64,000 nucleotides of DNA from Aminiphilus circumscriptus DSM 16581 (lineage in GTDB: Bacteria; Synergistota; Synergistia; Synergistales; Aminiphilaceae): positions 248,001 through 312,000 of the forward strand of contig NZ_JAFY01000005.1 of the NCBI RefSeq assembly GCF_000526375.1, in the 5' to 3' direction. Numbering within the stretch: the stretch's first letter is position 1; each line of letters opens with the position of its first letter. Positions 24,201 through 47,586 of this stretch are shown here, one piece after another. A model generated the notes under the pieces. The model was not told the origin of the DNA. It saw only the letters and a list, made by a program, of their open reading frames with translations, and made no database searches. A program made the position numbers and the translations under genes.

Positions 24201-24201
24201 G

Positions 24202-28127: not shown

Positions 28128-28189
28128 CGGTCTCCTCCCCCCTTCTTGCAAAATCTCACCACCAGTGCGGCTGCACAAACCGTACGACG

Positions 28190-28708: not shown

Positions 28709-29288
28709 CGCTCCTTCTCCATTCGGATTGTCCACCCGAGGCGGTGCTCCCGTCTCTCTTTACGAACACAACGCTGAGACAAGGGTCGTTTTCGAGGACC
28801 TCCTCCTGTTTCCCGGCTTCGCTCCTCCGCGTGGACAAAGAGATTGTACGGCAAATTCGCCTCCCGGAGGAGAGAAGATCGTTGTTCAGCAGGTCGTTTT
28901 TTCATCCGGGAAAGAGCGGAGAATCCGAAGAGGGAGCGGAGAAATGCCTTTCCGAGAAAAGGCTGTCGCTCCGGTCTCGGCGAGGAGGAACGGCTTCCTT
29001 TGCGACGAAGCGAACCCCTTCGCCTCTGCCGGAAAAATCCGGGCCCGGGCGAGGTCCGATGTTCCGCCCTGCCGCAAAAACTCACTCGTGCCGGGAGAGC
29101 CCCTTCACGACCTTGTCGATCGCTTTCCGCTCTCCGTAGAACGCCATGCCCACGAGATTGAGTTTCTCTCCGGGAACACCGAGCACCGCCGCACGGTTCG
29201 CCTCGTCTCCCGAGGTTCTGAAAACGGTGAGGCCACATCCCCGTCTCGCGCTGAAACAGCCGGAGAAACGAGAACGGCGAAAGGTCGA
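28709..29288. other. Unassigned stretch with a probable gene fragment
   Basis: No complete gene is convincing here. On the minus strand, 29082-29288 encodes a protein-like C-terminus (VLGVPGEKLNLVGMAFYG then ERKAIDKVVKGLSRHE, stop at 29082) with no start, because the IS5-type relic begins at 29289. This looks like the 3' end of a gene cut by the insertion; the family is not recognised. 28709-29081 shows only overlapping frames without ribosome binding sites. Confidence 0.4.
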
Positions 29289-29911
29289 GGAATCTCTGAA
29301 AAACTCGCGGATGTCGCCGTTTTTCCCTTGAGACCGTAAAATGAATCCCAAAGTCACCATGTTCCTCCGGTGCGACCTTCTTTCCAGGGGGCTGAGGTAC
29401 GAGAAAGCGACAGAAAACTTTCGCGAGCGCCATTTCGTTCGAGAAAGACCGAAAACCCACCAAACGGGAACTCTTTCTCGCCGAAATGGAACAGAGAGTC
29501 CCTTGGAAAGAGCTTTGCGCTCGTCTCGAACCCTTCTATCCGAAAGAGGGAAAGGGACGTCCTCCCATAGGGCTGGAAATGCTTGCGGCTCCACGTTCTC
29601 CAGAACGAGTTCGGGCCTTGAGCGACAGGGGTGTAGAAGAAGCCCTCGTGTGACGTGGAGTCCATGCGGCGCTTCGCCCGTATCGATCTTGCGCAACGAA
29701 CCCGTTCCGGACGCACGATTTGCACGTTCCGCCATCTTCTGGAAACCCACAAGCTCGCAAGAGTCCCTTCGAGGCGGGAAATCTTTCTCTCGCCTCCCGG
29801 GGCTTAAAACTCTCCGAGGGAACCAACGCGCCCGCCACGATCCTCCATGCTCCTTCGCAGGCGAAAACCTGAGAGAAGAAACGCGACCCGGAGATGCATT
29901 CCACGAAGAAG
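29289..29911 (+). pseudogene. Degenerate IS5-family transposase and left end
   Basis: The left end GGAATCTCTGAAAAA at 29289 matches the terminal repeat of the MITE family. About 105 nt later broken reading frames give IS5-type transposase pieces: FEKDRKPTKRELFLAEME then RVPWKELCARLEPFYPKEG at 29422-29545, ALSDRGVEEALV ending at a stop near 29645, TICTFRHLLETHKLA near 29716, and EKKRDPEMHSTKKGN near 29875. Several frameshifts and stops separate them, no start codon remains, and the catalytic C-terminal half is missing where MITE copy C begins. It is dead, and probably a past source of the MITEs. Confidence 0.75.
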
Positions 29912-30011
29912 GGAACCTCTGAATAAGGCTACGTCAGCCCCGCAGAGCGCCCCGCAGAGCTTGATGCGACCCGAGCCAAGGGAAAGCGAAAGGTTTTTAT
30001 TCAGAACTTCC
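29912..30011. repeat. MITE copy C (100 bp, reversed)
   Basis: Same element as copies A and B in the opposite orientation and more diverged. Left end GGAACCTCTGAATAAGG; the right end reversed is GGAAGTTCTGAATAAAAAC, followed by a tandem repeat of the last 12 bp. No clear target duplication is left. It sits at the truncation point of the IS5-type relic. Confidence 0.75.
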
Positions 30012-30095
30012 TCAGAACTTCCCTAAGAAACACGCCTTCGAGAGAGGAAACTCTGTGGAAATCCGTAAATTCCCGGTCGCTCCGTTTTCTCTCTT

Positions 30096-30620
30096 TCACG
30101 GCGCGCCTTTTTGCGTCCCGACGGACGTGCCAGGCCAGACATAGGGCAGATCGGGAGGTTCCGTCCATCCGAATCGGCCGTACCACGATGGATCCTTGCG
30201 GAGCAGGTTGGACCGATGCGCCCTGTGGAAAGCCTCGTCCCCGAACCAGAAAGGGAGAAAACCGCGTTCCTCGCCCTTCATGGCACGGACATACCGCTCC
30301 GCCAGCTGCACCGCAAGCGCTTCGCCTTCGGAAGACGCTCCTTCGAGGCGGAAGGCGACCGCGAGAATCTTTCCTCTGCATGTGTCGGCGAAACCGAGAG
30401 AGATCCAGCGGTCACAGACGACGACACCGAAATGCGCGAGCGCGGCGGTGTGTCCCTCCCACATGATTCTGGCCGGGTGCGAGCGCCACCCCGTCAAAGC
30501 GCGACCGGGGAGAAAGGTGTTGAGAAGCTGCAACACCTCCACGCGCTGCTTACCGAGGCGTTTCGGATCGAGTACGGCGGCACTCGCCGCGAAGTCTCCG
30601 TAGGGAAGAAAGGTCTGCAT
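30096..30620 (-). CDS. MSMEG_6728/Pyr_excise-family protein (T4 endonuclease V-like)
   Basis: Protein of 174 aa resembling the family that contains T4 pyrimidine-dimer glycosylase. Seen: MQTFLPYGDFAASAAVLDPKRLGKQRVEVLQLL at the N-terminus, WRSHPARIMWEGHTAAL near residue 45, then DTCRGK. In phage T4 the enzyme removes UV dimers; for the bacterial proteins this is inferred from the shared fold. ATG 30620 follows GGGAGAG. It stands alone between mobile remnants, and 30621-30825 shows no gene. Confidence 0.8.
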   Translation of the reverse strand: MQTFLPYGDFAASAAVLDPKRLGKQRVEVLQLLNTFLPGRALTGWRSHPARIMWEGHTAALAHFGVVVCDRWISLGFADTCRGKILAVAFRLEGASSEGEALAVQLAERYVRAMKGEERGFLPFWFGDEAFHRAHRSNLLRKDPSWYGRFGWTEPPDLPYVWPGTSVGTQKGAP

Positions 30621-30825
30621 GATTGCTCTCCCGCAATAGATACACCCGTCATTGCCCTCTCAAAACGGAAGGGGCTTTTCTCGCCCGGCAAGGATCCCGA
30701 CCGGCACTTCGCTCCGGCACGTCGCATCCGGGCACCTTCGCTCCTCGGCGGACATCATTCTTCGAATCAGCATAGACGAAATCCATCACAGGAGCCAGAC
30801 CCCTTTTCCCTCTTTGGCACCAAAA

Positions 30826-31628
30826 AGTTGTGTGCGTCAAGTTGTGCAAAAAGATTTTCATGGTGTTTGGCGGCCGTCTGCGGCGATGAGCCACACTTTT
30901 CCAAGAGTGCCTTTTTGTGTTCGATCAACAGGTCCCTGCCCGAGGTAGCGACTGGACTCCAGCCACGCCTCGGAGGTTTCGACGCACAGTGCCCGTATCA
31001 GGCGCTGACATGCATCGGTGTTTGGGAAGATACGGACGACCCGGGTCCTTCTCTTGATCTCTTCGTTGAGCCGTTCCAGCATGTTGGTTGACTTCAGATG
31101 CTTGTGATGTGCTCTGGGAAGCCGGTAGAAGGTCAGCGTCTCCTCTATGTTCTCCTCCACCCAGTCAACAAGCTTCGGATATTTCCTCTGCCATTTGGTG
31201 ATCCAGGACGTCAGATCCCGGTGGGCCTCCATAATGTCCCGGCGGTCGTAGATCCAGCGGAGTTCCTGGAGACAGTCGTCATCGGCCTTACGGGGCGGAT
31301 GATCCAGAGCATTCCGCAGAAAATGGACGTAGCAACGCTGCCAAGATGCTTCGAGCAGGGTCTCTCCGATGGCCGAACGAAGTCCTGCGTGTCGGATACC
31401 ACGAATTCGACACCGCGCAAACCCCGTAGCTTGAGCCCGAGAAGAAACTCTTTCCAACTGCTTGCCGTTTCACGGGGAGCCAATTCCACCGCCAAGATCT
31501 GCCGCTGCCCCTCCCGGTTGATTCCGATGGCGATCTGTACCGCCTGGGAATGGATAACTCCGTTCTCGCGAACTTTCTCGTAGCGGGCATCCAGAATCAA
31601 ATACGGGTACGCTACAATTCCTCGGTAA
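30826..31628 (-). mobile_element. IS256-family insertion sequence, 5'-truncated copy 1
   Basis: Carries the last two thirds of an IS256-type mutator transposase in two frames. One starts YPYLILDARYEKVRENGV and reaches EFVVSDTQDFV near 31390; the frame then shifts to RHAGLRSAIGETLLEASWQRC and runs to the stop at 30858. The N-terminus is missing; it ends at 31626 against the 318-bp repeat. The terminal end GTTGTGTGCGTCAAG is at 30828. It is inverted relative to copy 2 (43150-44352) and shares its internal deletion and frameshift, so it cannot make transposase. Confidence 0.85.
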
Positions 31629-31946
31629 TCGGTACTCATGAGAACGGCCCCCTTCTCGAAGAGAAGAGGGCCGTTTGGAGTGCGGCAGAGCGAAAACCTA
31701 CTCGATCACCGACGCCTTGAGGATCACCACCGGCTCCAGGGGAACGTCCTGAAAAAATCCGACGTTGCCGGTGTCCACGGTCTTGATGGCATCGACCACA
31801 TCTTTTCCCTCCACAACGCGGCCAAAGACGGCATACCCCCATCCTTGCACGTTCGGCGCCGTGTGGTTGAGAAAAGCATTGTCCTTGACGTTGATGAAGA
31901 ACTGCGCCGTCGCCGAATGGGGATCCTTTGTCCGGGCCATGGCAAC
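31629..31946 (-). repeat. 318-bp direct repeat, left copy, holding a ppiB 3' fragment
   Basis: Nearly identical to 45458-45775 (one difference noticed, G/A at 31759/45588). It contains the end of the cyclophilin gene (codons for [15 protein letters not shown] to the stop at 31698) and the hairpin downstream of it. At 31946 the match stops after GTTGCC, and the next bases belong to the helicase gene region instead of ppiB. The fragment keeps an in-frame ATG at 31940 and could give an 80-aa truncated protein lacking the first half of the cyclophilin fold. Confidence 0.9.
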
Positions 31947-31956
31947 TGGATGTCTG

Positions 31957-34900
31957 TCAAACGCCTCTTTGCTCCATCAATCTCTTCTTTAACCGCTCTT
32001 TGACGCGCAGAACTGTAATTTCGTTTCTCTTGTAACTCTTCAGAAGGCTCTCGGCCTCTCTGCACGCGGAGTCTAGACCTGCCTTGAAGAGAAGGACGGG
32101 GACGGAGATCGTGGCTGTTCGACCAAGTTTCGGGATGTCCAGCTCGAAAAAGACTTCCGGCAGTTTTTTCAAGGGATTCGTCTCCATATCGATGACGGGA
32201 ATGACGTCCTTTTCCCCGAGACACTGGTCAAGTCCCTGCACGACTCCCCAAAAGAGGTCCTCGTCCCTCACACCGATCATGGAAAGGCTTTTTATGTAGC
32301 AATACGCAACAAACCACTCCAGCCATCTCTGCGTTTTCGCAGCCGTCTCGTTGATCCTCAGGACCCGATTGTAGACCGACCGTTCGTAGGCCACGACGTC
32401 TTTCTCGATCTCCTCGAGCCGGGCCTTCAGCTCCTTTTCGAAGTCCGGGAGCTTCCCCTCTTGGGGCGCCTCGTCGGCAAGACTCACCCCCTCCAGATCC
32501 GCAAGACCTGTAACGAGCCGTTCCCCCTGTTCGGTGTTGACCACCAGGGCCTCCACCGGTCGATAGGCATCCAAAGCCAAAGGCGCAACGGAGATCGGAG
32601 GCTCGGCTGCCTCGAGGACCGCCTCCATCAGGCGCTCGAAAACCGGGTCCAGATAGGTCGCCAAATGAAGCTCGCACTCCAGACCCGGAATGCCCGTCTC
32701 GAGGACCGCCCGGTCGCCGGTCAGGCAACACCCCCTTGGAATGCCCGGAATTCCCGCGAGGCGCAACACCTTCTCGTTCGTTCCGGGCACGAGTTCGCAC
32801 CCCAGGTCACACAGGTACCGGCAATTCGCCAACAGCCCCCAGATGCTTTCCAGTGTCACCGGCATCGCGCCGGTCCGTCTCCGCTCGGAAATCCTCCGGT
32901 AGAAATCGTAAAGCTCCTCGGGGGGCACTTCCATGGCCTCGATCTGCCGTTTCTGCCTTTCCATTCGTTCCTTCGCCACTTGCTCAAGTTTAAATTCCGA
33001 AATCTTTCCTGCGGCGTAGGCGTCGAAATCTTCCTCGGAGAGAGGAAGGATGGAGAACGGAATCGAGCCCGTCATCTCTTGAGCGACCCGGAGGCGATCC
33101 AAGAGCCTCCCGTAGATGATTTCCTCCACGGAATCCAGCATGCAGAGGTTGAGGACGAAGATTTCCTCGTGCTTCTGGCCGATGCGGTCGATGCGACCCA
33201 CCCGCTGTTCCACCTTCATGGGGTTCCAGGGCAGGTCGAAGTTGATCAACAGATCGGCGGTCTGCAGGTTCAGCCCCTCCGCCGCGGCGTCCGTGCAGAG
33301 CAGGACGTCCACTTCGTCGCGAAGAAATCGCTTTTTCACGTCCTCCCGGTCCGTATTGACGAGCTCCCCCCGGCTTTCGTCGTAATACGCGCAATATCTT
33401 CCGCTGTAGACTCCGAGCCGGAGGTTCGGTGCCTGCCGCCGCAACGTCCGGCGAAGATCGTCAAGGGTGTCGAGATACCGGGTGAAAAGAACCGTCTGCC
33501 TGATCCGGCTGTTGTCCTCCTTCCTCCTCCTGCCCTCAAGACATTTCAAGAGCTCTTTCGTCTTCGACGAAATGCCCGTCAACGCCTCCAAACGCTTCAG
33601 GATTTCCGCGATGGCATCCCTCTCCCACTGCAGGTCCTCCGGACTCCGGTTTTCCAGGACCTTGTCCAGCGGATTTTCATCCGTGTCCCGCTCCTCCGGG
33701 TTGAAGTCCTCGGGTTCTTCCGGAGCGGCTCCCAAGGCAAGAAGCGTTCGCTCGACCTTCTCCCTGCGCCTCTTGAGGGATTCCTGCAAGGCATAGAACG
33801 AAGAGCTGCACCGCTGGCGCAGGAAGCTCAAATAGAACCCCAGACTGGCCCGGTTCTCGCTTTCCGTACCGGATTCCTCGATTTTCCGGGCCAATTCCTG
33901 GCAATATTCCTGGAGACCGTCGTAAACATCCTTTTCTTCCGCAGTGAAAACGATCCTTGGTATCGGAAGGATGGTTCGCGTCGCCAGGTTCTCCCGCAGT
34001 TGGCCCTTTGCCTTGTAAAGCTCAAGGAGTTTTCTCGTATGCCGGAGCATCACCCTGGACAGCGGAGCAGCGGCAAAAAGCAGCCTTCGGATAAAGGCAT
34101 GGTCCGCCGTGCGAGGGGACCGGTTTTCCTGGAGCCAGTCTTCCAGGATGGTCCTGACGCGTCCCTGGATGATGCCATCGCTCAGGTAATTCCATAGCCA
34201 GGGATCTTCCTCTTGGATCCTCTCGATCGCCCGCTTGAGAAGTTTCCATTCGGAGGGATCGAGCGGCTCGTTGCGTCCCAGCTTCCCCAGCCCTTCGTAA
34301 TAGGCTCGCACCAGGGAAGGCGATGCCCCAAAGGCCCCCACCCGTTCGCAAAGCCGGAAAAGGTCGTAGGCCTCGATCCAATCCAACTGCACCGGAGTCG
34401 CGGTGGCCATCCAAAGGGCTTCGGCCTTTTCCCCCAGGTGTTCCTCGATGGTTTGATAGAGCTTGCCGTAGGAGGGATCCGACCGGCAGCTGTCCTCCGT
34501 GTTGGGGTTTTTCCGACGGGCGTAATGCGCTTCGTCCACGAGCACCACATCGAAGGAATCCGCCTTCAAAAGTTCGAAAAGCCGCTCCTCTCTCACAACA
34601 AGCCCGCTGGAAAGGATGCAAAGGTCTGGCTCGAAGAGGTTCTCCGCGGAGAAACTCTCTTGATCCGGAAAGAGAACCTCGTGTTTCTTGGCGGGACTAG
34701 CGATGCCACGCCGGAAGGGAAGAGAGAACTTGGAGGCCATTTCCCGTTGCCACTGCTGGGTCAGGCTGGCAGGTGACACCACAAGAACCCGCTCGATCAC
34801 CCCGGACAGGAGGAGGGAGCGCAGGGCCAGCCCCGCCTCGATGGTCTTGCCCAGTCCGACCTCGTCGCAGAGCATGAAGCTCGAGGGCCAGTTTTCGATG

Positions 34901-35823
34901 AGCCGCCGCGCCACCACCTCCTGATGGGGCCAGGGGGAGACCGGGGCGGTTTCCATGCCCACCCAGAGTCCGCCCGGCATGTGAGGCGCCATCCGAATCA
35001 CCTTGAAGGCCAGCCATTCCTCAGGGGAGGGTTTTGGTGGAACCTTTCGCGGAGTGCCGTCCACCTCCCGGGGAACGCTGACCCGCTCTCCCATCTTCAC
35101 CAGTTTTCGATGGACCGCCTCCGGCAGGGTCAGGACCCGAAAATGAGGATGCCGGTTCTCCCAAAGGGCCTCGAAATCCCTCTGATGGTCGGAAATCCGG
35201 CTTGATGACGGTCCTTCCCACCAATCGCAGTCGACGTTCAGGTTTTCCGCGTTCAAAACCAGAGCTGTTTTCGATTCATTCAAGGACCCGGACGCCAAAA
35301 TCCGGTGCCCCGCCGCGTCCCGAAAAAGCGCCCATTTTTCGTGGACGTATCCGTCCTCCTGGGACTCGAACGGCAGAGGTTCCGCCGTCTTTCCATGCAG
35401 GCGGAAGGCAACCCGCACCTCAAGAAACCCCCTGCTGACCATCCAGGCCAGAAGCTCGACTCCGCGGGTCACGTTTTCAGGCCAGGTCCCCTCCAATTGC
35501 GACAACAGGTGCTTTTCGAGGCGGGCTTGTTCCCCGGAAAGGACGGCCGCCACGTCGTCCGGGCTCATGTTTGCTCCGGCGATGAGCCGCATCCGTCCAT
35601 CGTGGGCCGTGAAAGCCGAATATCCCTGCGAAGCCGCGGCCAAAGACGAGGAGGTGAAGTAGCCCGCCACCCGGTCGTACGCCACAGAACGCTCCAGAAC
35701 CGGGATGTAGAACTCGTGGAGGATGTCCACGAGGCTTCCGTCCTCCCGGAGGGTCGAGGTCTTGTAGGCGTAGTTCCAAGTCCGGTCGCGGAAGCGAAGG
35801 CCGCCCTCACCCAGGCGAGCCAT
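31957..35823 (-). CDS. PLD-nuclease/SNF2-type helicase fusion of a defence operon
   Basis: Large protein of 1288 aa. Residues about 30-230 form a phospholipase-D-like domain with VHEKWALF (HxK near 163) and [10 protein letters not shown]. The helicase core follows: Walker [14 protein letters not shown] near 321, DEAH box [11 protein letters not shown] near 429, TATPVQ near 465, and the C-terminal lobe with [22 protein letters not shown] and [11 protein letters not shown] near 878. The last 350 residues are unlike known domains. It is the last gene of the operon, 2 nt after the methyltransferase. In helicase-methylase-ATPase systems it would process or translocate on foreign DNA; this role is inferred. 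The stop at 31957 is followed after 16 nt by the ppiB fragment. Confidence 0.9.
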
Positions 35824-35825
35824 TC

Positions 35826-38800
35826 TCAGGCCTCCAAAAGTCCCAGCCCGAACCGAATCGCCCGGGCTTCCTTCCTCAACGTCTCGTCCGCCACCTCCTC
35901 CGCCCAGACGCAGAGCAGGCTTTTCGCCACGGAAGCCTTTTCACCGGCCTTGTTCTGGAGATATCCCTTGGCGGTGATCTCCATCCCCTCCCGGTAGGCC
36001 ATGATCGTTCCCTGCAGGAGATCCCACTCCGTCTGGGGGCTTTCGAGGCGGCGAGGATCCCGCTCTTCGGGGAGAGCCAGGCGGAGCTTGCTTCCTTTGC
36101 GGACAAGCGGTGCGGCAAAACCGACTTCGTTGGACTTGAGCGCCGCCGCCCGCCGCTCGCTTTCCTGGGCGTTGATGCCGATAAAACGGCCATTCGCGGC
36201 ATACCCCCCGGTCTTGGCCTCCAAGGCGATGTTCAGGGACTTCGAGAGGCTCAAGGCATCGTCATAGTCGAACTCCTCAAGGCCGAAGATGCCGAAAAGA
36301 AGCACCGCCATGGCGGCCTCGGGCGAAAGGTCCGACAGGGAAAGTTTCCCCTTTGCGCTCTCCCGGAACTGGGCCTCGGCGACGACGCGGGAGGCTTCGA
36401 GCATGGCCCGCTTCGGCCCGACCGGGTCTTCCCCATCCAAAACGGGCCAATTTTCCGACAAAACCTGCAGGGCCCGGCCGTAGCAGGCGACCATCCGGTC
36501 CACCGGGTTCAGGTTCAGGTGGGCAAATTCCTCCAGTCCCTTCTCGACACCCGCCTGCACTTTCTGCTGGACGCCGCTGCCGCCAAAGCCCCTCCAGGAG
36601 CTCGGAGGACGATTTTCCTGCCGGACCGCCTTGCGACAGGAAATAAAGATAGAACTGACCGTAGCGGCCATATTCTGGTGATGGATATCTCTTTCCCCTT
36701 CAGACTCAACAGGCACAGTCGATGTGATGACAAACCCACTGTGTATGAGTGCTCGTGTGAGCGTTTCCCAAGCTTCCTGACTCTTGTGAGTGAACATCAT
36801 CGTCATAAGCCCGCCGTCTTTCAAAACGCGACGAGCCTCGAGGAAAATCTCTCCCATCATGCGCTCATACGCTGCCTTGGACTCCTTCTCCCCCCCATCA
36901 CGATCCGGGTTCGCAACGGCCTCTTCGTCCTTGTTTGTGAGACGTCGGTGAAAGAGGTCCGGATAGAGGTCCTTGAGGGTCCGTCTCTGCCAGACGTAGA
37001 AATAATCGGAGAGCTCCGCGTATTGGACATTGTTGTAGTAGGGGGGGTCGAAGCAAATGACGTCCACCGATTTATCCGATACCTGCGGCATCGCCGCCGC
37101 CGTCCCGTTAAAGAGCGTCAGGGGCGGGTTTCCCCGGGTTGCCCGCCTCACGGGCTCCAGGAGTTCGGCTATTCCTCCGTAGGCCTCCAAGATTTGAGAC
37201 AAACCCCATGCGGCACCAGAATTTGGTCCCGTAAAAACCATTTCCCCGAAAGTCCATTTTGTCGAGAAATCGTGACGAGTAAAAACATGAGCGATAACAC
37301 CTCTGTTTGCATGCCATAATGTTTGTATGCTGTTGTAATCCAATCCCTTATCGATGGCGAACTGAAGATAGGTCACCACAGCCTTGCCCTTTTCATGGTC
37401 CAGTTCCTTCAGAATTTGAGGCTTCAGGCGGTTCAGTTCCTCGATGAGGAAAAGGTGCCCCAGGAGTTGGCGTGGGGTGAACAGATCACACCACCGTTTC
37501 ATGCCAACCCGTAGGGGTTCTCTCGTCTTATGCCCTTCGGGAATAGCTTCCGTAGGGATCAGACCGGCGTCCTCCCAGCGGGTCCAGTTCTCCTTCAGCA
37601 TCCGCTCCGCCTCGTCCAGGGCGGCGAGGTCGCGTTCGTTCGGAGGACGGAAGAAATGGACCTTCTCCATCTTGATTTCTCCCGCCCTTTTCCCGGTCTT
37701 GACCCTTTGGACGCGTCCGTTTTTGTCGAGTTTGGGCTGATGGCGCACCGCCGCCACGGCATAGAGGCGGTCCTTCCACTTGCCGTGCTCGGATTCCCCG
37801 CGGGCCTGGCGCTTGATCTCCTCCGCGTCGATCCCCTGTCCGCAGTGGACGCAAAGCCCCTTGCCGCCGCGGACGGTCGAAAAATCGGGATCCTCTCCGT
37901 TGGATCCTTTCCCCGTCGTGACGCAGTAGGTCTTGAACCGAACCGTGCCATTCTTTCTCTTTCCGTCCGGTAGAACGGCAACCCCCCAGGGCTCTCCGTC
38001 CGCCTTGGAAAGCCAGCAGGTGTTGAGAAGCGGGGCTTCGCCTCCGCAATGGGGGCAAGTCACCTGCCGGACGTAGATGTAGTCCATGACGGACTCTTGG
38101 TCGAAATCGGTGATGGACGTGTCACAGCGACTCATGTGATCCTTCAGCCGTTGCATTTCCTCCGGAGGAATTTTTGATTCGGGGAATAAGTGAGAAATCT
38201 TGTCGTCTAGATTTTTCAGAAGGGTTTTCCCCCATGTTTCGATATCTTTTACAAGTTCCGATCCGAACCTGGCCGGGTAATTCAAGGTCGCGTCAAGGAT
38301 GACCGAGGCGACGGGGTTCAATTCGTTGGCCAAGGTCCTGCATCCCAAACGGAGGGCTTCGAACGGAATGGAACCTCCTCCCGCCGTAATGTCCATCACG
38401 GAGACATCCGGGTGCGAAGTCTTGGGAGGAGTTGTAAAGGCACGATCATACCCGTACATATCCTCCGGAGTCCAGTTTAGATCCATCCCCAAGACCCTTT
38501 TTACTCGGGGATCGGTCTTGAAGGCAATCCGCTCCTTGACATGGGCCGGATCCGCGGCGACCGTGCCGACGTCGAGCAGGGCATTGGAGGCGGGGCGCTC
38601 AAGAGGCTGGGTCTCCCTCTCCCATAGCAGGAGAACGGGGTCCTTCGCCAGGTCGGGATCGCTCTTTTTCAGGGTTTCTATGATTTGTCGGCATGCGGCC
38701 CGCCTCTCGTTCTCTTTGTCGAACGCGGCGGCGGCGGTTTCGTCGAAGACTAAGATTTCGGCGCCACCGTCGCCCACGCGGATAAGGTCCTTGTTCTTTC

Positions 38801-39074
38801 CCACAAGAACCCACTCGCCACCCTCCAGACAAAGGACCTTCCTCTCGATCCCCAATTCCTTCAAAAACCAGTCCGGATCGGTGTCCGCCGGAAGGATGGA
38901 GCCCAGGACCGCGGCGCGGCTGGGGGTCAGGGGTCGCCGGGCCCACCAGACGTGAAGGTAATAGAGGGGCGGCAGAGCCGAGCTGGAGCCTCGTTCCCGC
39001 TGCGTTTCGGCCCCCACCTGATGACAAGGAAATCCTGCTTCGATGAGCCTCCGGTCGTTCTCTTTCTCCGTCAT
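35826..39074 (-). CDS. DUF1156-type DNA methyltransferase of a defence operon
   Basis: Protein of 1082 aa. The N-terminus (RLIEAGFPCHQVGAE then LYYLHVWWARRPLTPSRAAV) is the DUF1156 signature. Methyltransferase motif I (VMDITAGGGSIPFEALRLG) is near residue 228 and catalytic motif IV FDPPYYNNVQYAEL near 675, as in N6-adenine or N4-cytosine enzymes. The 450 residues between them hold two Cys pairs (CPHCGGEAP near 341, CVHCGQG near 408), probably a zinc site. It probably marks host DNA so that the helicase and ATPase partners spare it; the target sequence is unknown. It lies 19 nt after the 202-aa protein and 2 nt before the helicase. Confidence 0.9.
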   Translation of the reverse strand: MTEKENDRRLIEAGFPCHQVGAETQRERGSSSALPPLYYLHVWWARRPLTPSRAAVLGSILPADTDPDWFLKELGIERKVLCLEGGEWVLVGKNKDLIRVGDGGAEILVFDETAAAAFDKENERRAACRQIIETLKKSDPDLAKDPVLLLWERETQPLERPASNALLDVGTVAADPAHVKERIAFKTDPRVKRVLGMDLNWTPEDMYGYDRAFTTPPKTSHPDVSVMDITAGGGSIPFEALRLGCRTLANELNPVASVILDATLNYPARFGSELVKDIETWGKTLLKNLDDKISHLFPESKIPPEEMQRLKDHMSRCDTSITDFDQESVMDYIYVRQVTCPHCGGEAPLLNTCWLSKADGEPWGVAVLPDGKRKNGTVRFKTYCVTTGKGSNGEDPDFSTVRGGKGLCVHCGQGIDAEEIKRQARGESEHGKWKDRLYAVAAVRHQPKLDKNGRVQRVKTGKRAGEIKMEKVHFFRPPNERDLAALDEAERMLKENWTRWEDAGLIPTEAIPEGHKTREPLRVGMKRWCDLFTPRQLLGHLFLIEELNRLKPQILKELDHEKGKAVVTYLQFAIDKGLDYNSIQTLWHANRGVIAHVFTRHDFSTKWTFGEMVFTGPNSGAAWGLSQILEAYGGIAELLEPVRRATRGNPPLTLFNGTAAAMPQVSDKSVDVICFDPPYYNNVQYAELSDYFYVWQRRTLKDLYPDLFHRRLTNKDEEAVANPDRDGGEKESKAAYERMMGEIFLEARRVLKDGGLMTMMFTHKSQEAWETLTRALIHSGFVITSTVPVESEGERDIHHQNMAATVSSIFISCRKAVRQENRPPSSWRGFGGSGVQQKVQAGVEKGLEEFAHLNLNPVDRMVACYGRALQVLSENWPVLDGEDPVGPKRAMLEASRVVAEAQFRESAKGKLSLSDLSPEAAMAVLLFGIFGLEEFDYDDALSLSKSLNIALEAKTGGYAANGRFIGINAQESERRAAALKSNEVGFAAPLVRKGSKLRLALPEERDPRRLESPQTEWDLLQGTIMAYREGMEITAKGYLQNKAGEKASVAKSLLCVWAEEVADETLRKEARAIRFGLGLLEA

Positions 39075-39093
39075 GGCTTTCTTGTCATCTCCT

Positions 39094-39702
39094 TCAGTTA
39101 CGGCGCAGCTTCTCGAGCATCGTCTGGATGGCCGGATCGTGGGGCTGACCGGCCAGCATGATCCGAAGGCCCGTTTGAGCCCAGCGGTTCGCCTCCGGGC
39201 TGAAATCGGAGATGCGGGAATGCCAGTAGGCGGCCTCCTCCCGGGAGAACTTCTCCACGCGCCGGGCCATCAGTTCCACCCGGTCCAGTTCCTTCAGCCG
39301 TTCCTGAAGCTTGAACATGAGGGCGAACTTGAAGCCCGTCTCTTCGTCCAACGGCAAATTTCCCCGATAGGCGACGGGCAGTCCTTCGATGTATCTCTGG
39401 ATTTCCAGGGGGATTCCCTGTTCGCTTCGAATTCCCGACAGAATCTTTCGGACGATGGGCAAAAGGCGGACCAGGGCATCTCCGAACAAGGCCCCGCGAT
39501 CTTGGATGGTTTTTTTCTCTTTGCCCGAAGCGTCCTTTTCACCGGGAACAAGGAGATGTTCCTTCACGACGAAGACCGGGCTGGGCCTGCCCGAATGGTC
39601 CGTCACGCGAAGAATCCACCTGGCACTCTTCAACGCGGGCCTCAGGTAGGTGTCGAAATGCCGGTCCAAATCCAAGCCGGAGGAGCGAACGATCTTTCTC
39701 AT
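39094..39702 (-). CDS. Accessory protein of the defence operon, function unknown
   Basis: Protein of 202 aa, not recognised. It is soluble and basic overall, with a first half of mixed strands (SARWILRVTDHSGRPSPVFVVKEHLL) and a helical second half (MFKLQERLKELDRVELMARRVEKFSREEAAYW). It does not look like DUF3780, another small protein of such operons, as far as can be judged by eye. ATG 39702 begins 4 nt after the stop of the ATPase gene and uses AAAGGA from its end. The tight position between ATPase and methyltransferase suggests a structural or specificity partner. Confidence 0.75.
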   Translation of the reverse strand: MRKIVRSSGLDLDRHFDTYLRPALKSARWILRVTDHSGRPSPVFVVKEHLLVPGEKDASGKEKKTIQDRGALFGDALVRLLPIVRKILSGIRSEQGIPLEIQRYIEGLPVAYRGNLPLDEETGFKFALMFKLQERLKELDRVELMARRVEKFSREEAAYWHSRISDFSPEANRWAQTGLRIMLAGQPHDPAIQTMLEKLRRN

Positions 39703-39706
39703 GGGG

Positions 39707-42700
39707 TCATTCCTTTCCTTGCAATGCGCGCCGGAGCTCTCTGACCAGCAGACAGGTTTCGTCGGGATTTCCGATCTCCACAATGAGTTCGCTTTCCGAC
39801 GAAGGCGTCAGCATATCCCCCAGGATCTCGAACAGCTCTCCCAACTGCTTCATCCCTTCAGGGCCGACATCCCGCAGCATGAGGGAGAAACGCCCTCCCG
39901 TCGGGAGTTCGAATTCGGTCACGTCGAACCGGTGGAAACGGGTCTTCGCCCCCCTGGTGTAGAAGCTTCCGAGCTTTCTCAAGAACCCGGACGAGAAGAC
40001 CGCCAATCCTTCGGGACCGGAAATCTTCAGGGCATTGGGCTTTTCGGCGAGCCATCCTCTTCGGACGGCCTCGCCTCGGGTGATGACAACCAGTTCCGGA
40101 GTCGGTGTCATCCGGATGGCCTCGATGCCGGAGACCAGTTTTGGGGGCTTCTCGGACTGCTCGGGATCTCCTTCGTAGGCGAGAAGCTGCTCTTTCCGGG
40201 CCAGGTCCACAAGAGTTTCGTTGATGATCTCCTCCGGGGCGTCGTCGCGAAGTCCCTTGACGTGCTCCTGGACCTGGGCCACTCTGAGGCCTTTCTTCTC
40301 TTCCGTGGCTGACTCCACCAGGCAGCGGATCTCCTCTTTCGTTGGACCCGACTGAATCCCCCATCTCCGCTGCTTTGCCCCCTGAACCGTGACCAGAATG
40401 TCTTCGTCGCTCAACTCTTCGTGGATGGGAATTTCCGGGGTTTCGGCATCGTAGAATTTTCCCGGTTTCCCGGTTTTTTCGTCGAACTTTCCGGCCAAGC
40501 ACCAGTATCCTCTCTTGACGCCCTCCCGGGCGATGAGCGGCAGGCACTCCGGATCCTCCAGGACGGGCCAGCCTCGGTTCACGTGGAATTTCTCCCGGAT
40601 CCGACCCAAAGAGAGGTAATCCCCATCCGCAAAGAAAAGCGACTGGAGCTCGTGGAGGATTTCCTTTGTTACCGGGCCCGAGGGAATAATTTCTCCATTT
40701 TCCTTCAGGACCGTGCGGATTTGCTCGAACTGCGCGTCGCCTCCCTCGCCTCCAGCCGTTCGGATTTCCTTGAGGGCGAAGATCCCTTCCTTGACCGGAT
40801 AGGCGAGGAAGCGATAGGCGAGGCTCACCCGCCTTTCAAGGTCATTGTCCAGCTTCGGGAAGTCAATTTCCTTCACCTGGGAGGCCGAAATGCCATAGTT
40901 CTGGGGGTTGTCCTTCAGGATCTTGGTCGCAAGGACATTTCTTGCGAGAGCGTAAAGTTCGAATTTGGCCCGTTCCCGCTGCTCCTCCCCTTCCGGGATG
41001 AGGCGCCCTTCCTCGCCGGGACGGAGGATGCGGGCTGTTTCCGGAATGAACAGGAAGACGCTGTTCTGGTACAGACGAGGAACGCCCTTGCCCACGGTGG
41101 TGATGAAGGCGACAGGATCCACCTCGGCAAGCCGGATGGAGAGAACTCCCAGCAGCGAACGGTCCTGTTTGTCCGGAAGGTCCTGAGGGCCAATAACATC
41201 CGGCTTGACCAAAAAGCCCTGCCGGCTCTTTCCAAACAGATTTCGGGCCTTCACCTCCAGCTCGGTCAGAATCTGTTCTTCGGTGATGGACTCTCGGATC
41301 CTCGAAAGGGCCAAATTGACGTTCGGCTCGGAAACGGCGTAGTAGAGCCCGTTCTTCTCTCTGAGGTAGAAGGCTTTCGTCCGGATGTCCTCCAGGGCCT
41401 GCTTCACTTGTGCGGGGGTAAGCCCCGGCTGGGCCACGGCAAGCAGGGCGTCAGGTTCGTTGATCCCGAAAACGGGGCTCGCCAGGCCTTCCGCCTGTCC
41501 CGCAAGGCTGTTCAGAAAGACGGTCTTCCAGGTCAGGACATGGTACGGGATCTTGTCCGGATGAGGGTTCTCGTGGTCGGCCCGTTCGGCGTTGGAGCGC
41601 CCGCCCTGAAGCGCTGGAGTATCCGCAGTCCCGATGTCCGCGTTGAGCACCGGGATCATGGAAGTGTTGCCCGTGCGGCCCAAAAGTTCGTCCACGGTCC
41701 GGGCATCCATGAAGTCCAGATGGCCAGGATGGATCATGGGGACATCGTTTCCCGACTTCCAAAGAGCCCGCACCGCGAGTGCGAGGATTCTCAGGACGCC
41801 CCGGGTTTTCTGGAAGGTCGGGACCGTGGAGAGCTTTTTGTTCAACAGGTCCAACATGGCGGGATGGAAGGGATAGGTCGTTCGCATCTCCTCGAGGAAG
41901 GGCTCGAGCTGAAGGCCTCCGGGAAGAAGCGACGTGCTTCGCTCGTAGAGCTGTCGATACGCTTCCACGGTGCGGCGGGCTTCGTTCCGGTCGATGTGTT
42001 CAAAAAGACGCTTGCCGAGGACGGCGGAGAGGTCCTTTGCCTTGACGGGCACCACGACGGTTTCTGCTCTCGCCAGGATAGTGGTCAGTTCTCGAGCGGC
42101 ATCCTGCTGAAGCGACAGGGCCTGTCCGGAATCCAGGGGCTGGTTGGAGAGTTCCGAAAGGGTTTTGGAAAGCTCGGCCGTTTGTGCGGAAAATGCATCG
42201 TGAAGCCCCGCCAGGGTGACGACGATGGCGATGCCGGGATGTTGGGAGGCATACCCCAGGAGTGACATGAAGAAGGTGGGCAGCATGGTTTTTGCCTGCG
42301 GGTAGGCGACGGCCCACCGGGCGGCGTAATGCGCCAGCTCGTCGATGAGGATCAAGACCCTGCGGCCGCCGAAGAGTCGCTCGAAAAAGGCTTCGTCGGG
42401 AGAATCGAGACGGTCCAGATAGGAAGCAACGTCGTCGGACAGGTCGGTCCCGCCCAATTGCCGGGCGATCTCCGTCCACAGGGGATACGGTTTCAACTCG
42501 CTACCCCGCGTTTCCTTGACGGGAACGGCATCCCCGGCAATCGCGACGACATCGACCGTTCCGGGCTCGGGAAGGAGATCTTCCTCGATGAACTCGGAGA
42601 CGTAGGAGGCCAGCTCTTTTCCTTTTTTCGCCAGGTGGAGGCAGGCAATGAGGGTGTGGGTCTTGCCTCCGCCGAAACCGGTTTCGAGGCGCTTCAGGGC

Positions 42701-42937
42701 CGAGGCAGTGGTTTCTCCGCCGAGACGGAAGACGACATCCCGAAGAATCATCTTCATGTCCTCGGTGAAATAGGTCCCTTCGGAGAAGAACGCGGACGCA
42801 TCCGTGTAGAGAAGGTGTACCGATTTCTGGCCTTTGTAAAAGTTCGCCACCTGGCTTAGAGAGGCGGTAAAAATCTCCATGTTGATGGAGCCGGATAGAA
42901 GGTCCTTCCTCGGTTGACACGCTTTCAGTACGCCCAC
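39707..42937 (-). CDS. DUF499-type AAA ATPase of a defence operon
   Basis: Protein of 1076 aa with a P-loop near the N-terminus: ALKRLETGFGGGKTHTLIACLH (Walker A about residue 90) and RRVLILIDELAHYAARW (Walker B about 198). This is the pattern of DUF499 ATPases, which are found next to DUF1156 methylases. The remainder is long and mostly helical, with a winged-helix-like region (about 500-560) and a C-terminal strand-rich end. GTG 42937 has GGGGAGG before it. It is the first large gene after the promoter at 43112-43140. It probably is the motor or sensor of the complex; this is inferred. Confidence 0.88.
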   Translation of the reverse strand: MGVLKACQPRKDLLSGSINMEIFTASLSQVANFYKGQKSVHLLYTDASAFFSEGTYFTEDMKMILRDVVFRLGGETTASALKRLETGFGGGKTHTLIACLHLAKKGKELASYVSEFIEEDLLPEPGTVDVVAIAGDAVPVKETRGSELKPYPLWTEIARQLGGTDLSDDVASYLDRLDSPDEAFFERLFGGRRVLILIDELAHYAARWAVAYPQAKTMLPTFFMSLLGYASQHPGIAIVVTLAGLHDAFSAQTAELSKTLSELSNQPLDSGQALSLQQDAARELTTILARAETVVVPVKAKDLSAVLGKRLFEHIDRNEARRTVEAYRQLYERSTSLLPGGLQLEPFLEEMRTTYPFHPAMLDLLNKKLSTVPTFQKTRGVLRILALAVRALWKSGNDVPMIHPGHLDFMDARTVDELLGRTGNTSMIPVLNADIGTADTPALQGGRSNAERADHENPHPDKIPYHVLTWKTVFLNSLAGQAEGLASPVFGINEPDALLAVAQPGLTPAQVKQALEDIRTKAFYLREKNGLYYAVSEPNVNLALSRIRESITEEQILTELEVKARNLFGKSRQGFLVKPDVIGPQDLPDKQDRSLLGVLSIRLAEVDPVAFITTVGKGVPRLYQNSVFLFIPETARILRPGEEGRLIPEGEEQRERAKFELYALARNVLATKILKDNPQNYGISASQVKEIDFPKLDNDLERRVSLAYRFLAYPVKEGIFALKEIRTAGGEGGDAQFEQIRTVLKENGEIIPSGPVTKEILHELQSLFFADGDYLSLGRIREKFHVNRGWPVLEDPECLPLIAREGVKRGYWCLAGKFDEKTGKPGKFYDAETPEIPIHEELSDEDILVTVQGAKQRRWGIQSGPTKEEIRCLVESATEEKKGLRVAQVQEHVKGLRDDAPEEIINETLVDLARKEQLLAYEGDPEQSEKPPKLVSGIEAIRMTPTPELVVITRGEAVRRGWLAEKPNALKISGPEGLAVFSSGFLRKLGSFYTRGAKTRFHRFDVTEFELPTGGRFSLMLRDVGPEGMKQLGELFEILGDMLTPSSESELIVEIGNPDETCLLVRELRRALQGKE

Positions 42938-42961
42938 GGCAAGTCCTCCCCGTTTACAAAT

Positions 42962-43045
42962 CTACTTTTGGAGCGCGACTTGAAGCTCCTCGTTCGCCCA
43001 CTGCTCGTCCTCTTCGAACAATTCCTCTGTAAGCTTTTCCCTCAT
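42962..43045 (-). CDS. Possible 27-aa leader peptide before the DUF499 gene
   Basis: Short frame MREKLTEELFEEDEQWANEE and onward to LQVALQK, strongly acidic and protein-like, ending 24 nt before the GTG of the ATPase gene. There is no clear ribosome binding site, so it may be a leader, the remnant of a lost gene, or chance. It lies in the 338-nt stretch 42938-43275 that also holds the operon promoter and the left end of IS256 copy 2. Confidence 0.25.
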   Translation of the reverse strand: MREKLTEELFEEDEQWANEELQVALQK

Positions 43046-43111
43046 GGAAAGTGGCGCTTTCTTCAAAGAGACTTGAGGGTTCAAAATAAACATGCATAGA
43101 TGACCACGTCT

Positions 43112-43140
43112 AGTTTATCGTCATTAACGAGCGCTTTCAA
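43112..43140 (-). promoter_or_regulatory. Promoter of the defence operon
   Basis: On the minus strand TTGAAA (43140-43135) and TAAACT (43117-43112) with a 17-nt spacer. It is about 175 nt upstream of the DUF499 start and immediately outside the left end of IS256 copy 2. No other promoter is seen within the operon. Confidence 0.65.
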
Positions 43141-43149: not shown

Positions 43150-44352
43150 TTCCGATTATGCTCTAAAGAGTGTGCAAAAAGTGCTTGCGGAGGGGGATTC
43201 AAAAAAAGAAGGTCATGGTGTATGTAGGTTGTCTGCAGCGCACAAGCAACCCGAGCCCTTAGGAGGCGATACACCATGACCGGAAAGAAGCATAGCAGTT
43301 GTTTCGCTGGCATGAAAGCCCTTTTCGGAAACGAAACGGACGCCCTGAAGACCCTGATGAAGGAAGTGCTGCAAGAGATACCTAGTCTGGTCACGCGAAT
43401 CGGCAAGCTGGAACTGCGGATTCCTAAAGACCGCAATGGAGAATTCTCCACGGCACTGTTCGAGCGTTATCAGCGCAGTGAGAAGGCATTGGTGGCGGCT
43501 CTGGCGGAAATGGATGTGCCGGGCGTGTCCACGCGCAACGTGACGGCGATCACCGAGGAATTGTCGCGTACCCGTATTTGATTCTGGATGCCCGCTACGA
43601 GAAAGTTCGCGAGAACGGAGTTATCCGTTCCCAGGCGGTACAGATCGCCATCGGAATCAACCGGGAAGGGCAGCGGCAGATCTTGGCGGTGGAAGTGGCT
43701 CCCCGTGAAACGGCAAGCAGTTGGAAAGAGTTTCTTCTCGGGCTCAAGCTACGGGGTTTGCGCGGTGTCGAATTCGTGGTATCCGACGCGCAGGACTTCG
43801 TTCGGCCATCGGAGAGACCCTGCTCGAAGCATCTTGGCAGCGTTGCTACGTCCATTTTCTGCGGAATGCTCTGGATCATCCGCCCCGTAAGGCCGATGAC
43901 GATTGTCTTCAGGAACTCCGCTGGATCTACGACCGCCGGGACATTATGGAGGCCCACCGGGATCTGACGTCCTGGATCACCAAAGGGCAGAGGAAATATC
44001 CGAAGCTTGTTGACTGGGTGGAGGAAAACATAGAGGAGACGCTGACCTTCTACCGGCTTCCCAGAGCACATCACAAGCATCTGAAGTCAACCAACATGCT
44101 GGAACGGCTCAACGAAGAGATCAAGAGAAGGACCCGGGTCGTCCGTATCTTCCCAAACACCGATGCATGTCAGCGCCTGATACGGGCACTGTGCGTCGAA
44201 ACCTCCGAGGCGTGGCTGGAGTCCAGTCGCTACCTCGGGCAGGGACCTGTTGATCGAACACAAAAAGGCACTCTTGGAAAAGTGTGGCTAATCGCCGCAG
44301 ACGGCCGCCAAACACCATGAAAACCTTTTTGCACAACTTGACGCACACAACT
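43150..44352 (+). mobile_element. IS256-family insertion sequence, copy 2, frameshifted
   Basis: Nearly full-length element. The left terminal region AGTGTGCAAAAAGTGC (43170) and the right end, read in reverse GTTGTGTGCGTCAAG, resemble each other. The transposase is split into three frames: 43276-43581 (N-terminus, ends ITEELSRTRI), a middle part from YPYLILDARYEK to EFVVSDAQDFV, and 43803-44320 (AGLRSAIGETLLEASW to the stop) with the catalytic region. A deletion of roughly 90 nt between TEEL and YPYL and a one-base shift after VVSD break it. Both lesions are also in copy 1. The boundaries are approximate. Confidence 0.85.
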
Positions 44353-44494: not shown

Positions 44495-45353
44495 GTGCCC
44501 ACCAAAGATGCACTTTCCGGTGTTTGCAAGGCTTCCCGTTTCAAACCCGGCGAAGTCGGGAAAAAAGAGGACAATCCGATCCGTTTCTTCCGCGATCCGT
44601 CCAGAGGAGCCTTCGAGATCAAACAGTACCGGAACGGTCTCCATGCGAAACGACCGCATTACCACGACGAAATCTCCATCGGCCTCGTGGAGAAGGGATC
44701 CTGCATGGTCTCCGTTTCGGAAGGACAGTTTCCCGTCTGCGAGACCTGGTCCTCTTCGCTCCCGGCACGTTGCACGCATGCCGCCCACGCGCCCGAGAAA
44801 CCTGGGGGGTTTCACATGCTCTATCGCGATCCGGCTTTTGCAGAGCGGGAATTCGGCGTCGTCCTTCCCCGGGGGGCACATCTCGTCTCGCCTTCCCCCG
44901 TGCGCAACGCGGAAAACGTCAAGGACCTTTTCACCTCTCTCATCGAAGAAGACGCCGAAAGCACTCGAGGACGCAACGCCATCGCCGCGCTTCTCGCCCT
45001 CATTCTCGCCGGCCGGCACGGGAACCAGGCGGGTTCGGTGCGGCGGAGCTGCGACGGAACCGGTTCCGTCGCAGCTCCGCCGCATGATCGAGAGCAGCCC
45101 CGAGGACAAGATCCCCCTGACGTTTCTCGCGTCACAGTCGAACACCACTCCCACATCCGTCCTGAGAGCCTTTCGCAGGAACCACGGCGTAACTCCCCAC
45201 GCCTTTCAAATGATCCTTCGGGTCAACCGTGCCAAAAAACTGCTGCTCCGCATGTCTTCTCTCGCCGCCGTGGCGAACGAAGTCGGTTTCTACGACCAGA
45301 GCCATTTCTCCGCTATTCGGCCATATGCCTCTTCGGGCCGAGCAGACTCGTGA
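44495..45353 (+). pseudogene. AraC-family regulator pseudogene
   Basis: Cupin-type ligand-binding N-terminus (KQYRNGLHAKRPHYHDEISIGLVEKGSC) and AraC HTH C-terminus (LTFLASQSNTTPTSVLRAFR, VANEVGFYDQSHFS) are present but not in one frame. One base is missing near 44739, so DLVLFAPGTLHAC falls in another frame. An extra G in the six-G run 44804-44809 restores it, and a 31-bp insertion near 45032-45062 shifts it again. Deleting those 31 bp joins NQA to VPSQLRRMIES in frame. No intact regulator can be made, unless these are sequencing errors. Confidence 0.8.
45039..45084. repeat. 46-bp perfect palindrome inside the AraC pseudogene
   Basis: Both 23-nt arms meet at the centre 45061/45062 (ACC then GGT) with no spacer and no mismatch. 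The right arm is original coding sequence (PSQLRRM), and the left arm is an inverted copy of it. Confidence 0.95.
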
Positions 45354-45457
45354 ACAGCCTCGCGGGAACGCTGCCGACGTTGAAATGACCTTGCGACGTC
45401 CTGTACGGACACTTGCGGTCTGAAGCATTTTTCCGGAGCCGTCTTTCACGTCTTTCG

Positions 45458-45775
45458 TCGGTACTCATGAGAACGGCCCCCTTCTCGAAGAGAAGAGGGC
45501 CGTTTGGAGTGCGGCAGAGCGAAAACCTACTCGATCACCGACGCCTTGAGGATCACCACCGGCTCCAGGGGAACGTCCTGAAAAAATCCGACGTTGCCGG
45601 TGTCCACAGTCTTGATGGCATCGACCACATCTTTTCCCTCCACAACGCGGCCAAAGACGGCATACCCCCATCCTTGCACGTTCGGCGCCGTGTGGTTGAG
45701 AAAAGCATTGTCCTTGACGTTGATGAAGAACTGCGCCGTCGCCGAATGGGGATCCTTTGTCCGGGCCATGGCAAC
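45458..45775 (-). repeat. 318-bp direct repeat, right copy, at the 3' end of intact ppiB
   Basis: Pairs with 31629-31946. It includes the second half of ppiB and a hairpin after it (45472-45479 plus 45481-45486 with 45490-45495 plus 45497-45504, one mismatch) that may terminate ppiB. The shared sequence starts at TCGGTACTCATGAG in both copies, and the DNA to the left of each copy differs. Confidence 0.9.
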
Positions 45776-46021
45776 GGTGTAGGCCTCGTTCTTCAAACCG
45801 TTGTTCGCCTCGTTCTGAATAGGATCCCGGGTCGGCTTCTGTGTCATGGTCTCGTCGAAGCCGCCTCCCTGGATCATGAATCCGTCGATGACCCGATGAA
45901 ACACGGTGCCGTCGTAGAACCCCTCCTTGACATACGCGAGAAAGTTTTCCACCGTCTTCGGCGCCTTTTCCGCGTCAAGCTCCAGCACGATATCGCCCTT
46001 ACTCGTCTCCAGTCTGATCAT
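45527..46021 (-). CDS. ppiB: Peptidyl-prolyl cis-trans isomerase, cyclophilin type
   Basis: Complete cyclophilin of 164 aa: [51 protein letters not shown] with the catalytic Arg in [15 protein letters not shown] and [18 protein letters not shown]. No signal peptide, so it is cytoplasmic. GGAGG precedes ATG 46021, and the gene follows the GNAT gene by 20 nt. Its 3' half is duplicated at 31629-31946, on the far side of the defence region. Confidence 0.95.
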
Positions 46022-46041
46022 CCGTCGATTCCTCCATTATC

Positions 46042-47313: not shown

Positions 47314-47354
47314 GACAACTGTGCTCCTTTTTCGGTCCTTCACCCGTCATCGAC

Positions 47355-47465
47355 GAGTGTTTGCAGAGGGGCTCACGCTTTCCTCGCGACCGAAACGGCG
47401 GCACTGCAACGATTTTTCGATTCCATCACGCAGAGGCCGCTTCGACCGCGCCTCCGCAAACACTC
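47355..47465. repeat. Inverted repeat pair upstream of the GNAT gene
   Basis: GAGTGTTTGCAGAGG at 47355-47369 and its near-perfect reverse complement (14 of 15) at 47451-47465, 81 bp apart, in the 398-nt gap 47314-47711. It could be a regulatory looping site or the ends of a tiny element. The rest of the gap holds only a terminator; 47620-47711 is strikingly AT-rich. Confidence 0.5.
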
Positions 47466-47550
47466 CTCACGTCCCCCTGAGAGTTGAACATCCACACACG
47501 CCCTTTCCGTGAAATCATCCCGCCAGTGGCGAAATCCGGACAATCATATC

Positions 47551-47586
47551 ACAAAAGAAAAACCCCTCCCGAAGTTTGCGGGAGGG
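47551..47586 (-). terminator. Rho-independent terminator of the ten-gene organic-acid operon
   Basis: On the minus strand an 8-bp GC stem (47586-47579 with 47571-47564) followed by TTTTTCTTTT. It stands 125 nt after the AbrB-type gene, the last of the operon. Confidence 0.75.

What the first reader, a model, noticed from the sequence alone, without database searches (positions are those of the whole stretch)
31957..43140. Compact helicase-methylase-ATPase anti-phage-type operon
Seen: one minus-strand operon with DUF499-type ATPase, a 202-aa protein, DUF1156-type methyltransferase and PLD-SNF2 helicase, spaced by 19 nt or less, from a single promoter at 43112-43140. Known: DUF499 and DUF1156 proteins cluster in defence islands, and a helicase-methylase-ATPase layout (named Hma in PADLOC, as I recall it) is a proposed phage defence. 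Inference: this is a defence system in a probable Synergistota member, on a mobile or recently rearranged segment. There is no nuclease gene beyond the PLD domain, so the effector step is open.
Basis: partly seen in the sequence, partly recalled or inferred. Interest (0 to 1): 0.8.

Follow-up and report, generated by a model that had tools for sequence, protein, structure and literature searches.

The report
Four-gene phage-defence operon with DUF7680
A Synergistota bacterium carries a four-gene set that most likely marks its own DNA and cuts unmarked foreign DNA; it belongs to a known group of phage-defence systems, but to a widespread branch that appears not to have been described, in which one small protein (DUF7680) is a distant, unrecognised cousin of the protein (DUF3780) used by the described branch.

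Summary
The operon is real and as described: four intact minus-strand genes (DUF499 ATPase, 202-aa protein, DUF1156 methyltransferase, PLD-SNF2 helicase) with gaps of 4, 19 and 2 nt. The defence reading holds at family level, but 'Hma' is not the right name. Hma is type 1 of the DUF499-centred BREX-related (BR) systems; a true Hma locus sits elsewhere in this genome. The window system has the nuclease-helicase of type-2 BR with its HKD motif intact, so a candidate effector exists.

The new point is the 202-aa protein. It is DUF7680, found in 73 related loci from 12 phyla, in the slot where described type-2 systems carry DUF3780; no locus has both. Profile comparison (score 38.7; best of 200 shuffled controls 18.9), predicted fold and matching ASCH fusions indicate that DUF7680 is a homologue of DUF3780, for which 'no definitive homologs' had been reported. 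DUF7680 systems form their own methyltransferase clade.

In a sister species the same chromosomal place holds 12.5 kb of other genes; here the operon lies between two damaged, inverted IS256-type copies. Defence, methylation and cleavage are inferred, not shown. Verdict: new variant of a known kind.

The parts
39707..42937 (-). DUF499 AAA+ ATPase (1076 aa, GTG start) with C-terminal DUF7744; first gene
   Evidence: Pfam DUF499 1.1e-28, DUF7744 3.4e-25; PADLOC HmaC 1.4e-63; Walker A GFGGGKTH 87-94 and Walker B LILIDEL 195-201, conserved in relatives
39094..39702 (-). DUF7680 protein (202 aa), proposed reader/adaptor, homologue of DUF3780
   Evidence: Pfam DUF7680 1.8e-32; in the same slot in 73 loci; profile match to DUF3780; model pLDDT 93.9
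35826..39074 (-). DUF1156-type DNA methyltransferase (1082 aa), N6-adenine type inferred from DPPY at 676-679
   Evidence: Pfam DUF1156 1e-12; PADLOC HmaB 4.2e-70; motif I DITAGGGS and motif IV DPPY conserved in 67 relatives
31957..35823 (-). PLD (HKD)-SNF2 helicase (1288 aa), proposed motor and nuclease
   Evidence: Pfam SNF2-rel_dom and Helicase_C; PADLOC PLD_Helicase 5.4e-64; HEKWALFRD 161-169 and GSLNES 179-184, with H, K, D, G, N invariant in 58 relatives
43112..43140 (-). promoter-like site TTGAAA-17-TAAACT, outside the IS
   Evidence: 9 of 12 matches; this class of site is not above chance in the region
43157..44352 (+). right IS256-type (Transposase_mut) copy, internally deleted
30826..31631 (-). 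left IS256-type copy, inverted and truncated
   Evidence: 806-nt inverted repeat, 99%; 3' end only
31629..31946 (-). duplicate of the 3' end of the isomerase gene at 45458-45775, joined to the truncated IS on one side and ending 10 nt beyond the helicase stop
   Evidence: 300 nt at 100%, junctions read

Best explanation
A restriction-modification-like phage-defence system of the DUF499-centred BREX-related group, in a DUF7680-bearing variant. Most likely working: the DUF1156 methyltransferase marks host DNA at a sequence motif (N6-adenine, inferred from DPPY). On unmarked invading DNA the complex licenses the PLD-SNF2 protein, whose motor moves along DNA and whose HKD domain cuts it. Shown here: gene set, order, intact catalytic residues, conservation across phyla, signs of horizontal spread, and relatedness of DUF7680 and DUF3780 at profile level. 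Inferred: methylation, sensing, cleavage, phage protection.
For: Operon and motifs. Order ATPase-DUF7680-MTase-helicase in loci from 12 phyla, ATPase and DUF7680 within 50 nt in 69 of 73. Patchy: 5 of 188 genomes of the phylum; different genes at the same place in the sister species. NCBI names the DUF3780 relatives 'anti-phage-associated'; PMC12839542 argues that DUF499 systems are RM-like defence. DUF7680 vs DUF3780: score 38.7 against a maximum of 18.9 in 200 column shuffles; the DUF7680 model has four strands and five core helices, the published description of DUF3780; ASCH fused to DUF7680 in two Chloroflexota loci, as published for DUF3780.
Against: No experiment on a DUF7680 system was found in the library. 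NCBIfam anti-phage models match far below their cut-offs (342 of 1100, 221 of 1000, 160 of 1200 bits). The DUF3780 model is only of medium confidence (pLDDT 69) and the two models could not be superposed with the tools at hand. Fold searches found no known relative for either model. Methylation could be regulatory rather than protective.
Confidence: 0.75

Rival explanations
1. A plain Hma (type-1 BR) system with one accessory gene.
For: PADLOC's best model is HmaB for the methyltransferase and HmaC for the ATPase; in the MTase and DUF499 trees DUF7680 systems lie nearer to Hma than to DUF3780 systems, with moderate support (89 and 84).
Against: The helicase has the HKD domain that Hma-order helicases lack and groups with the helicases of DUF3780 systems at full support; reverse gene order; DUF7680 conserved across phyla; separate MTase clade (97, starred).
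Confidence: 0.07
2. An ordinary type-2 BR system whose small protein is just a diverged DUF3780, already counted as such in the published survey.
For: Same gene order and HKD-helicase; DUF7680 is homologous to DUF3780; helicases group together.
Against: No DUF3780 (PF12635) match anywhere in the genome; the survey states that no definitive homologues of DUF3780 were found and that 98% of its type-2 systems have DUF3780; MTases of the two sets form separate, well supported clades.
Confidence: 0.25
3. Not protective: the operon is an inactive remnant, or a methylation system with a regulatory role.
For: It lies in a damaged, IS-bounded segment next to broken genes; activity untested.
Against: All four genes are full length with intact motifs despite the damaged neighbours; spread across phyla with nuclease-helicase always in the set.
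Confidence: 0.1

Closest known systems
Type-2 DUF499-centred BREX-related (BR) system (PMC12839542); the NCBI 'anti-phage-associated' DUF499/DUF3780/DUF1156/phospholipase D set
   Same: HKD-SNF2 helicase, DUF1156 MTase, DUF499 ATPase, a small gene between ATPase and MTase, same gene order
   Different: DUF7680 instead of DUF3780; MTase and DUF499 in other clades; helicase about 1280 aa instead of about 920; DUF7744 at the C-terminus of the ATPase
Hma (PADLOC 2021, PMC8565338) = type-1 BR system
   Same: Homologous ATPase, MTase and SNF2 motor; best PADLOC models HmaB and HmaC
   Different: Hma has helicase-MTase-ATPase order, no HKD domain, no small gene, often HEPN on the ATPase and a REase on the helicase; such a locus is elsewhere in this genome (L003)
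Type-3 BR and BREX systems
   Same: Related ATPase, MTase and helicase cores (PMC12839542)
   Different: They carry PglZ (and BrxB/iSTAND-like) genes; none is in this operon
DISARM / ARMADA (PMC12458937)
   Same: SNF2/RapA-like helicase and a methyltransferase; weak DrmD matches
   Different: No DrmA/YprA, DrmB or DrmC gene here; a DUF499 ATPase instead

Membership tests
DUF499-centred BR group | DUF499 ATPase + DUF1156 MTase + Swi2/Snf2 helicase in one operon | tested here: met
Hma / type-1 BR | HmaA, HmaB and HmaC as best models | tested here: inconclusive
   HmaB and HmaC are best; for the helicase PLD_Helicase and PbeA score above HmaA
Hma / type-1 BR | helicase without HKD domain (C-terminal REase instead) | tested here: not met
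   HKD and GSxN present and conserved; no REase or NOV_C match at the C-terminus
Hma / type-1 BR | helicase-MTase-ATPase order and membership of the Hma clade | tested here: not met
   order reversed; Hma MTases form their own group (99, starred) without the window
[quoted passage not shown]
   helicase tree joins DUF7680 and DUF3780 systems
Type-2 BR | standalone DUF3780 gene | tested here: not met
   no PF12635 match in the genome; a homologue, DUF7680, is in its slot
Type-2 BR | ATPase and MTase in the clade of DUF3780 systems | tested here: not met
   DUF3780 systems form separate groups at 100 in both trees
Type-3 BR / BREX | PglZ gene in the locus | tested here: not met
   only four genes between the IS copies; no PglZ match among them
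DISARM | DrmA, DrmB, DrmC genes | tested here: not met
   none in the operon
NCBIfam anti-phage DUF499/DUF1156/PLD equivalogs | score above the curated cut-off | tested here: not met
   160/1200, 221/1000 and 342/1100 bits
Any RM-like defence system | phage restriction and host DNA methylation | not testable with these tools
   needs plaque assays and methylome sequencing

The most novel reading that the evidence does not exclude
DUF7680 systems are a distinct, widespread, undescribed type of BR defence (a fourth type), with a type-2-like HKD-helicase and an ATPase and methyltransferase nearer to type 1; DUF7680 and DUF3780 form one superfamily of modification readers, the shared fourth component of HKD-helicase BR systems.
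Probability: 0.55. Interest if true: 0.6.

Novelty: new variant of a known kind. Interest (0 to 1): 0.5.

Why it matters
It links two uncharacterised protein families (DUF7680 and DUF3780), the second of which was reported to have no definitive homologue, and gives DUF7680 a concrete role to test. It shows that a defence variant found in at least 12 phyla is annotated as 'hypothetical protein' in public records that I saw and lies far below current naming cut-offs, so surveys probably under-count it. The alternation of DUF7680 and DUF3780 in one slot, with ASCH fusions in both families, makes the idea 'the small protein reads the DNA mark' directly testable.

Tried and rejected
Composite transposon: the IS copies are inverted, but no target-site duplication was found (CACCAAAA on the left, GGGCAGGA on the right) and both are damaged; rejected as an intact mobile unit. 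Foreign base composition: operon 59.1% G+C against 58.9% and 54.8% in the flanks; uninformative. A short ORF upstream of DUF499 (MREKLTEELFEEDEQWANEELQVALQK) has no counterpart in relatives; taken as leader or remnant. Small-protein profile scan of genomes: the alignment was too divergent for the pattern search; replaced by the methyltransferase profile. Fold searches of both models gave no match below E 0.001, so neither a known fold nor a viral relative was found. A first profile comparison with a poorer DUF3780 alignment was borderline (19.4 against a shuffle maximum of 19.2); with 33 DUF3780 sequences it became clear (38.7 against 18.9).

Full report
OBSERVATION. The four genes, their coordinates, strand and spacing are confirmed: DUF499 ATPase 42937-39707, small protein 39702-39094 (202 aa), methyltransferase 39074-35826, helicase 35823-31957, gaps 4, 19 and 2 nt. 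Comparison with the nearest relatives, from the same order of bacteria (45-66% identity), shows that all four proteins are full length. The proposed promoter fits the consensus, but sites of that class are not above chance in the region.

WHERE IT SITS. The genome (G000, 99.9% complete) belongs to the order of Synergistaceae UBA4066 (L011 and L059 are the same 18727-bp contig). In the only other genome held of the genus (G017) both flanks lie on one contig in the same order: window 24000-30814 corresponds to C47:34503-41605 and window 44560-47609 to C47:54118-57650, at about 90-95% identity. Between them G017 has 12.5 kb of unrelated genes, of which practically nothing is found anywhere in G000. 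The methyltransferase is absent from G017 (that genome is only 81% complete, but the locus itself is covered). In G000 the operon lies between two inverted copies of an IS256-type element of which the genome holds about nine long copies. The left copy is truncated and joined to a copy of the end of the isomerase gene (300 nt at 100% identity), which ends 10 nt beyond the helicase stop. The segment is thus recently rearranged, but there is no target-site duplication and neither IS copy is intact: it is IS-bounded, not a proven transposon.

RELATIVES. Scans of 84,980 species genomes and of IMG/VR with a methyltransferase profile, plus plasmid and phylum searches, gave 150 loci. DUF7680 is found in 73, from 12 phyla, with the order ATPase-DUF7680-MTase-helicase; one locus (L052) has ATPase and DUF7680 on the other strand. 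ATPase and DUF7680 are within 50 nt in 69 of 73. Between DUF7680 and MTase, and between MTase and helicase, more than 250 nt lie in 27 of 72 and 26 of 67 loci, often with inserted genes such as toxin-antitoxin pairs, a macro-domain protein, AAA ATPases or a Schlafen/AlbA protein. The window locus has no insert. Twenty-one loci have DUF3780 instead, in the same slot, and none has both; in the Synergistota the two families occur in 5 genomes each, without overlap. Twenty-nine loci have the Hma order helicase-MTase-ATPase without a small gene. Some members of the window's MTase clade lack DUF7680 in the stretch held; most of these are cut by contig ends, and a few IMG/VR contigs (L106, L112-L114) show the MTase without the ATPase as well.

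THE SMALL PROTEIN. PMC12839542 reports that DUF3780 marks type-2 BR systems (98%), that it has four strands and five helices, that it is sometimes fused to ASCH/PUA or RAMA reader domains, and that no definitive homologues were found. DUF7680 matches DUF3780 at profile level: score 38.7, probability 82%, against a maximum of 18.9 in 200 column-shuffled controls; with other alignments 37.3 against 18.5 in 150 controls. The shared features are a G..LA-like helix, an EE..(Y/W)W motif and a terminal ALR..L helix. The DUF7680 model is very confident (pLDDT 93.9), with four strands (29-34, 43-56, 62-72, 114-118) and five core helices (74-89, 120-132, 139-150, 154-165, 169-184). The DUF3780 model, of medium confidence (69.3), has the same order of its main elements. 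Two Chloroflexota proteins carry ASCH in front of DUF7680. Taken together I regard the two families as homologous (about 90%).

THE ENZYMES. In 58 helicases of DUF7680 systems the H, K and D of the HKD motif and the G and N of GSxN are invariant, and Walker A, DEAH and motif VI are kept; helicases of Hma order lack the HKD motif. The methyltransferase has motif I (D...GGGS) and DPPY, typical of N6-adenine enzymes (family knowledge); the ATPase has Walker A and B.

TREES. Methyltransferase: DUF7680 systems plus truncated contigs form one group (97, starred), apart from DUF3780 systems (100), Hma order (99) and a group from viral-collection contigs of unknown type (100). DUF499: DUF3780, Hma and the untyped group each form one clade; DUF7680 systems form one or two, nearer to Hma. 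Helicase: DUF7680 and DUF3780 systems together (100), against Hma and the untyped group. These are quick trees with long branches, and no representative of type-3 BR (with PglZ) was identified in the set, so the exact branching should not be pressed; the separateness of the DUF7680 methyltransferases is the safe part. The window's clade mixes Synergistota, Bacillota, Thermodesulfobacteriota and Pseudomonadota, which fits horizontal transfer.

HOW IT WORKS. Shown: gene set, intact motifs, conserved order, patchy spread, replacement at the locus. Inferred from the families and from the published model: host marking by the methyltransferase, DNA scanning by DUF499, reading by DUF7680, translocation and cutting by the HKD-helicase.

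KNOWN OR NEW. The system belongs to the DUF499-centred BR group. It is not Hma: a true Hma locus, with HEPN-DUF499, DUF1156 MTase and a helicase with a NOV_C domain, lies on another contig of the same genome. It works like type-2 BR, but fails that type's DUF3780 test and falls outside the clades of DUF3780 systems. No paper in the library mentions DUF7680. I file it as a new variant of a known kind; the main remaining doubt is whether the published survey counted such loci without naming DUF7680.

Noticed in passing
L003 5128-15009 (G000:C2:1073127-1083008): A second, type-1 (Hma) DUF499 system in the same genome: helicase with NOV_C, DUF1156 MTase, HEPN-DUF499; a further DNA methylase frame lies about 12 kb on (G000:C2:1094789-1095811).
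   Followed up: partly
L013 10249-17965, L014 10260-14460, L042 13731-14792, L089 2792-14506, L045 1100-17544, L051 5785-9901: Genes inserted inside DUF7680 operons at two preferred points (before and after the MTase): toxin-antitoxin pairs, macro-domain protein, Hsp70-like protein, AAA/NACHT-like proteins; gaps over 250 nt in more than a third of loci at each point.
   Followed up: partly
L041 3350-4321, L060 3288-4283: ASCH domain fused in front of DUF7680 in Chloroflexota; the N-terminal extensions of L046 and L030 have no Pfam match and may be wrong start choices.
   Followed up: partly
L138 4750-15030, L140 5929-16181 and further IMG/VR loci: Contigs from the viral collection with an ATPase (about 912 aa), a 330-aa protein, a DUF1156-related MTase and a SNF2 helicase without HKD motif: a separate clade that I could not type.
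   Followed up: no
L105, L107, L108, L109, L110, L111: DUF7680 operons on contigs of the viral collection; L108 has a recombinase-like ORF (992-2341, judged by eye) close by, so carriage on an integrative element or prophage is possible.
   Followed up: no
L030, L032, L105, just upstream of DUF499: An excisionase-like helix-turn-helix ORF (MTIDDLAAYLQVSKSSLYKLAQEG..., judged by eye) directly before the ATPase in Planctomycetota-type loci; a possible regulator.
   Followed up: no
window 44508-45388: AraC-type regulator gene, intact in the sister species (L167), but split over two frames and cut short here, with about 490 bp missing at 45311.
   Followed up: partly
window 30096-30620: Pyrimidine-dimer DNA glycosylase family protein (Pyr_excise) next to the left IS copy.
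   Followed up: no
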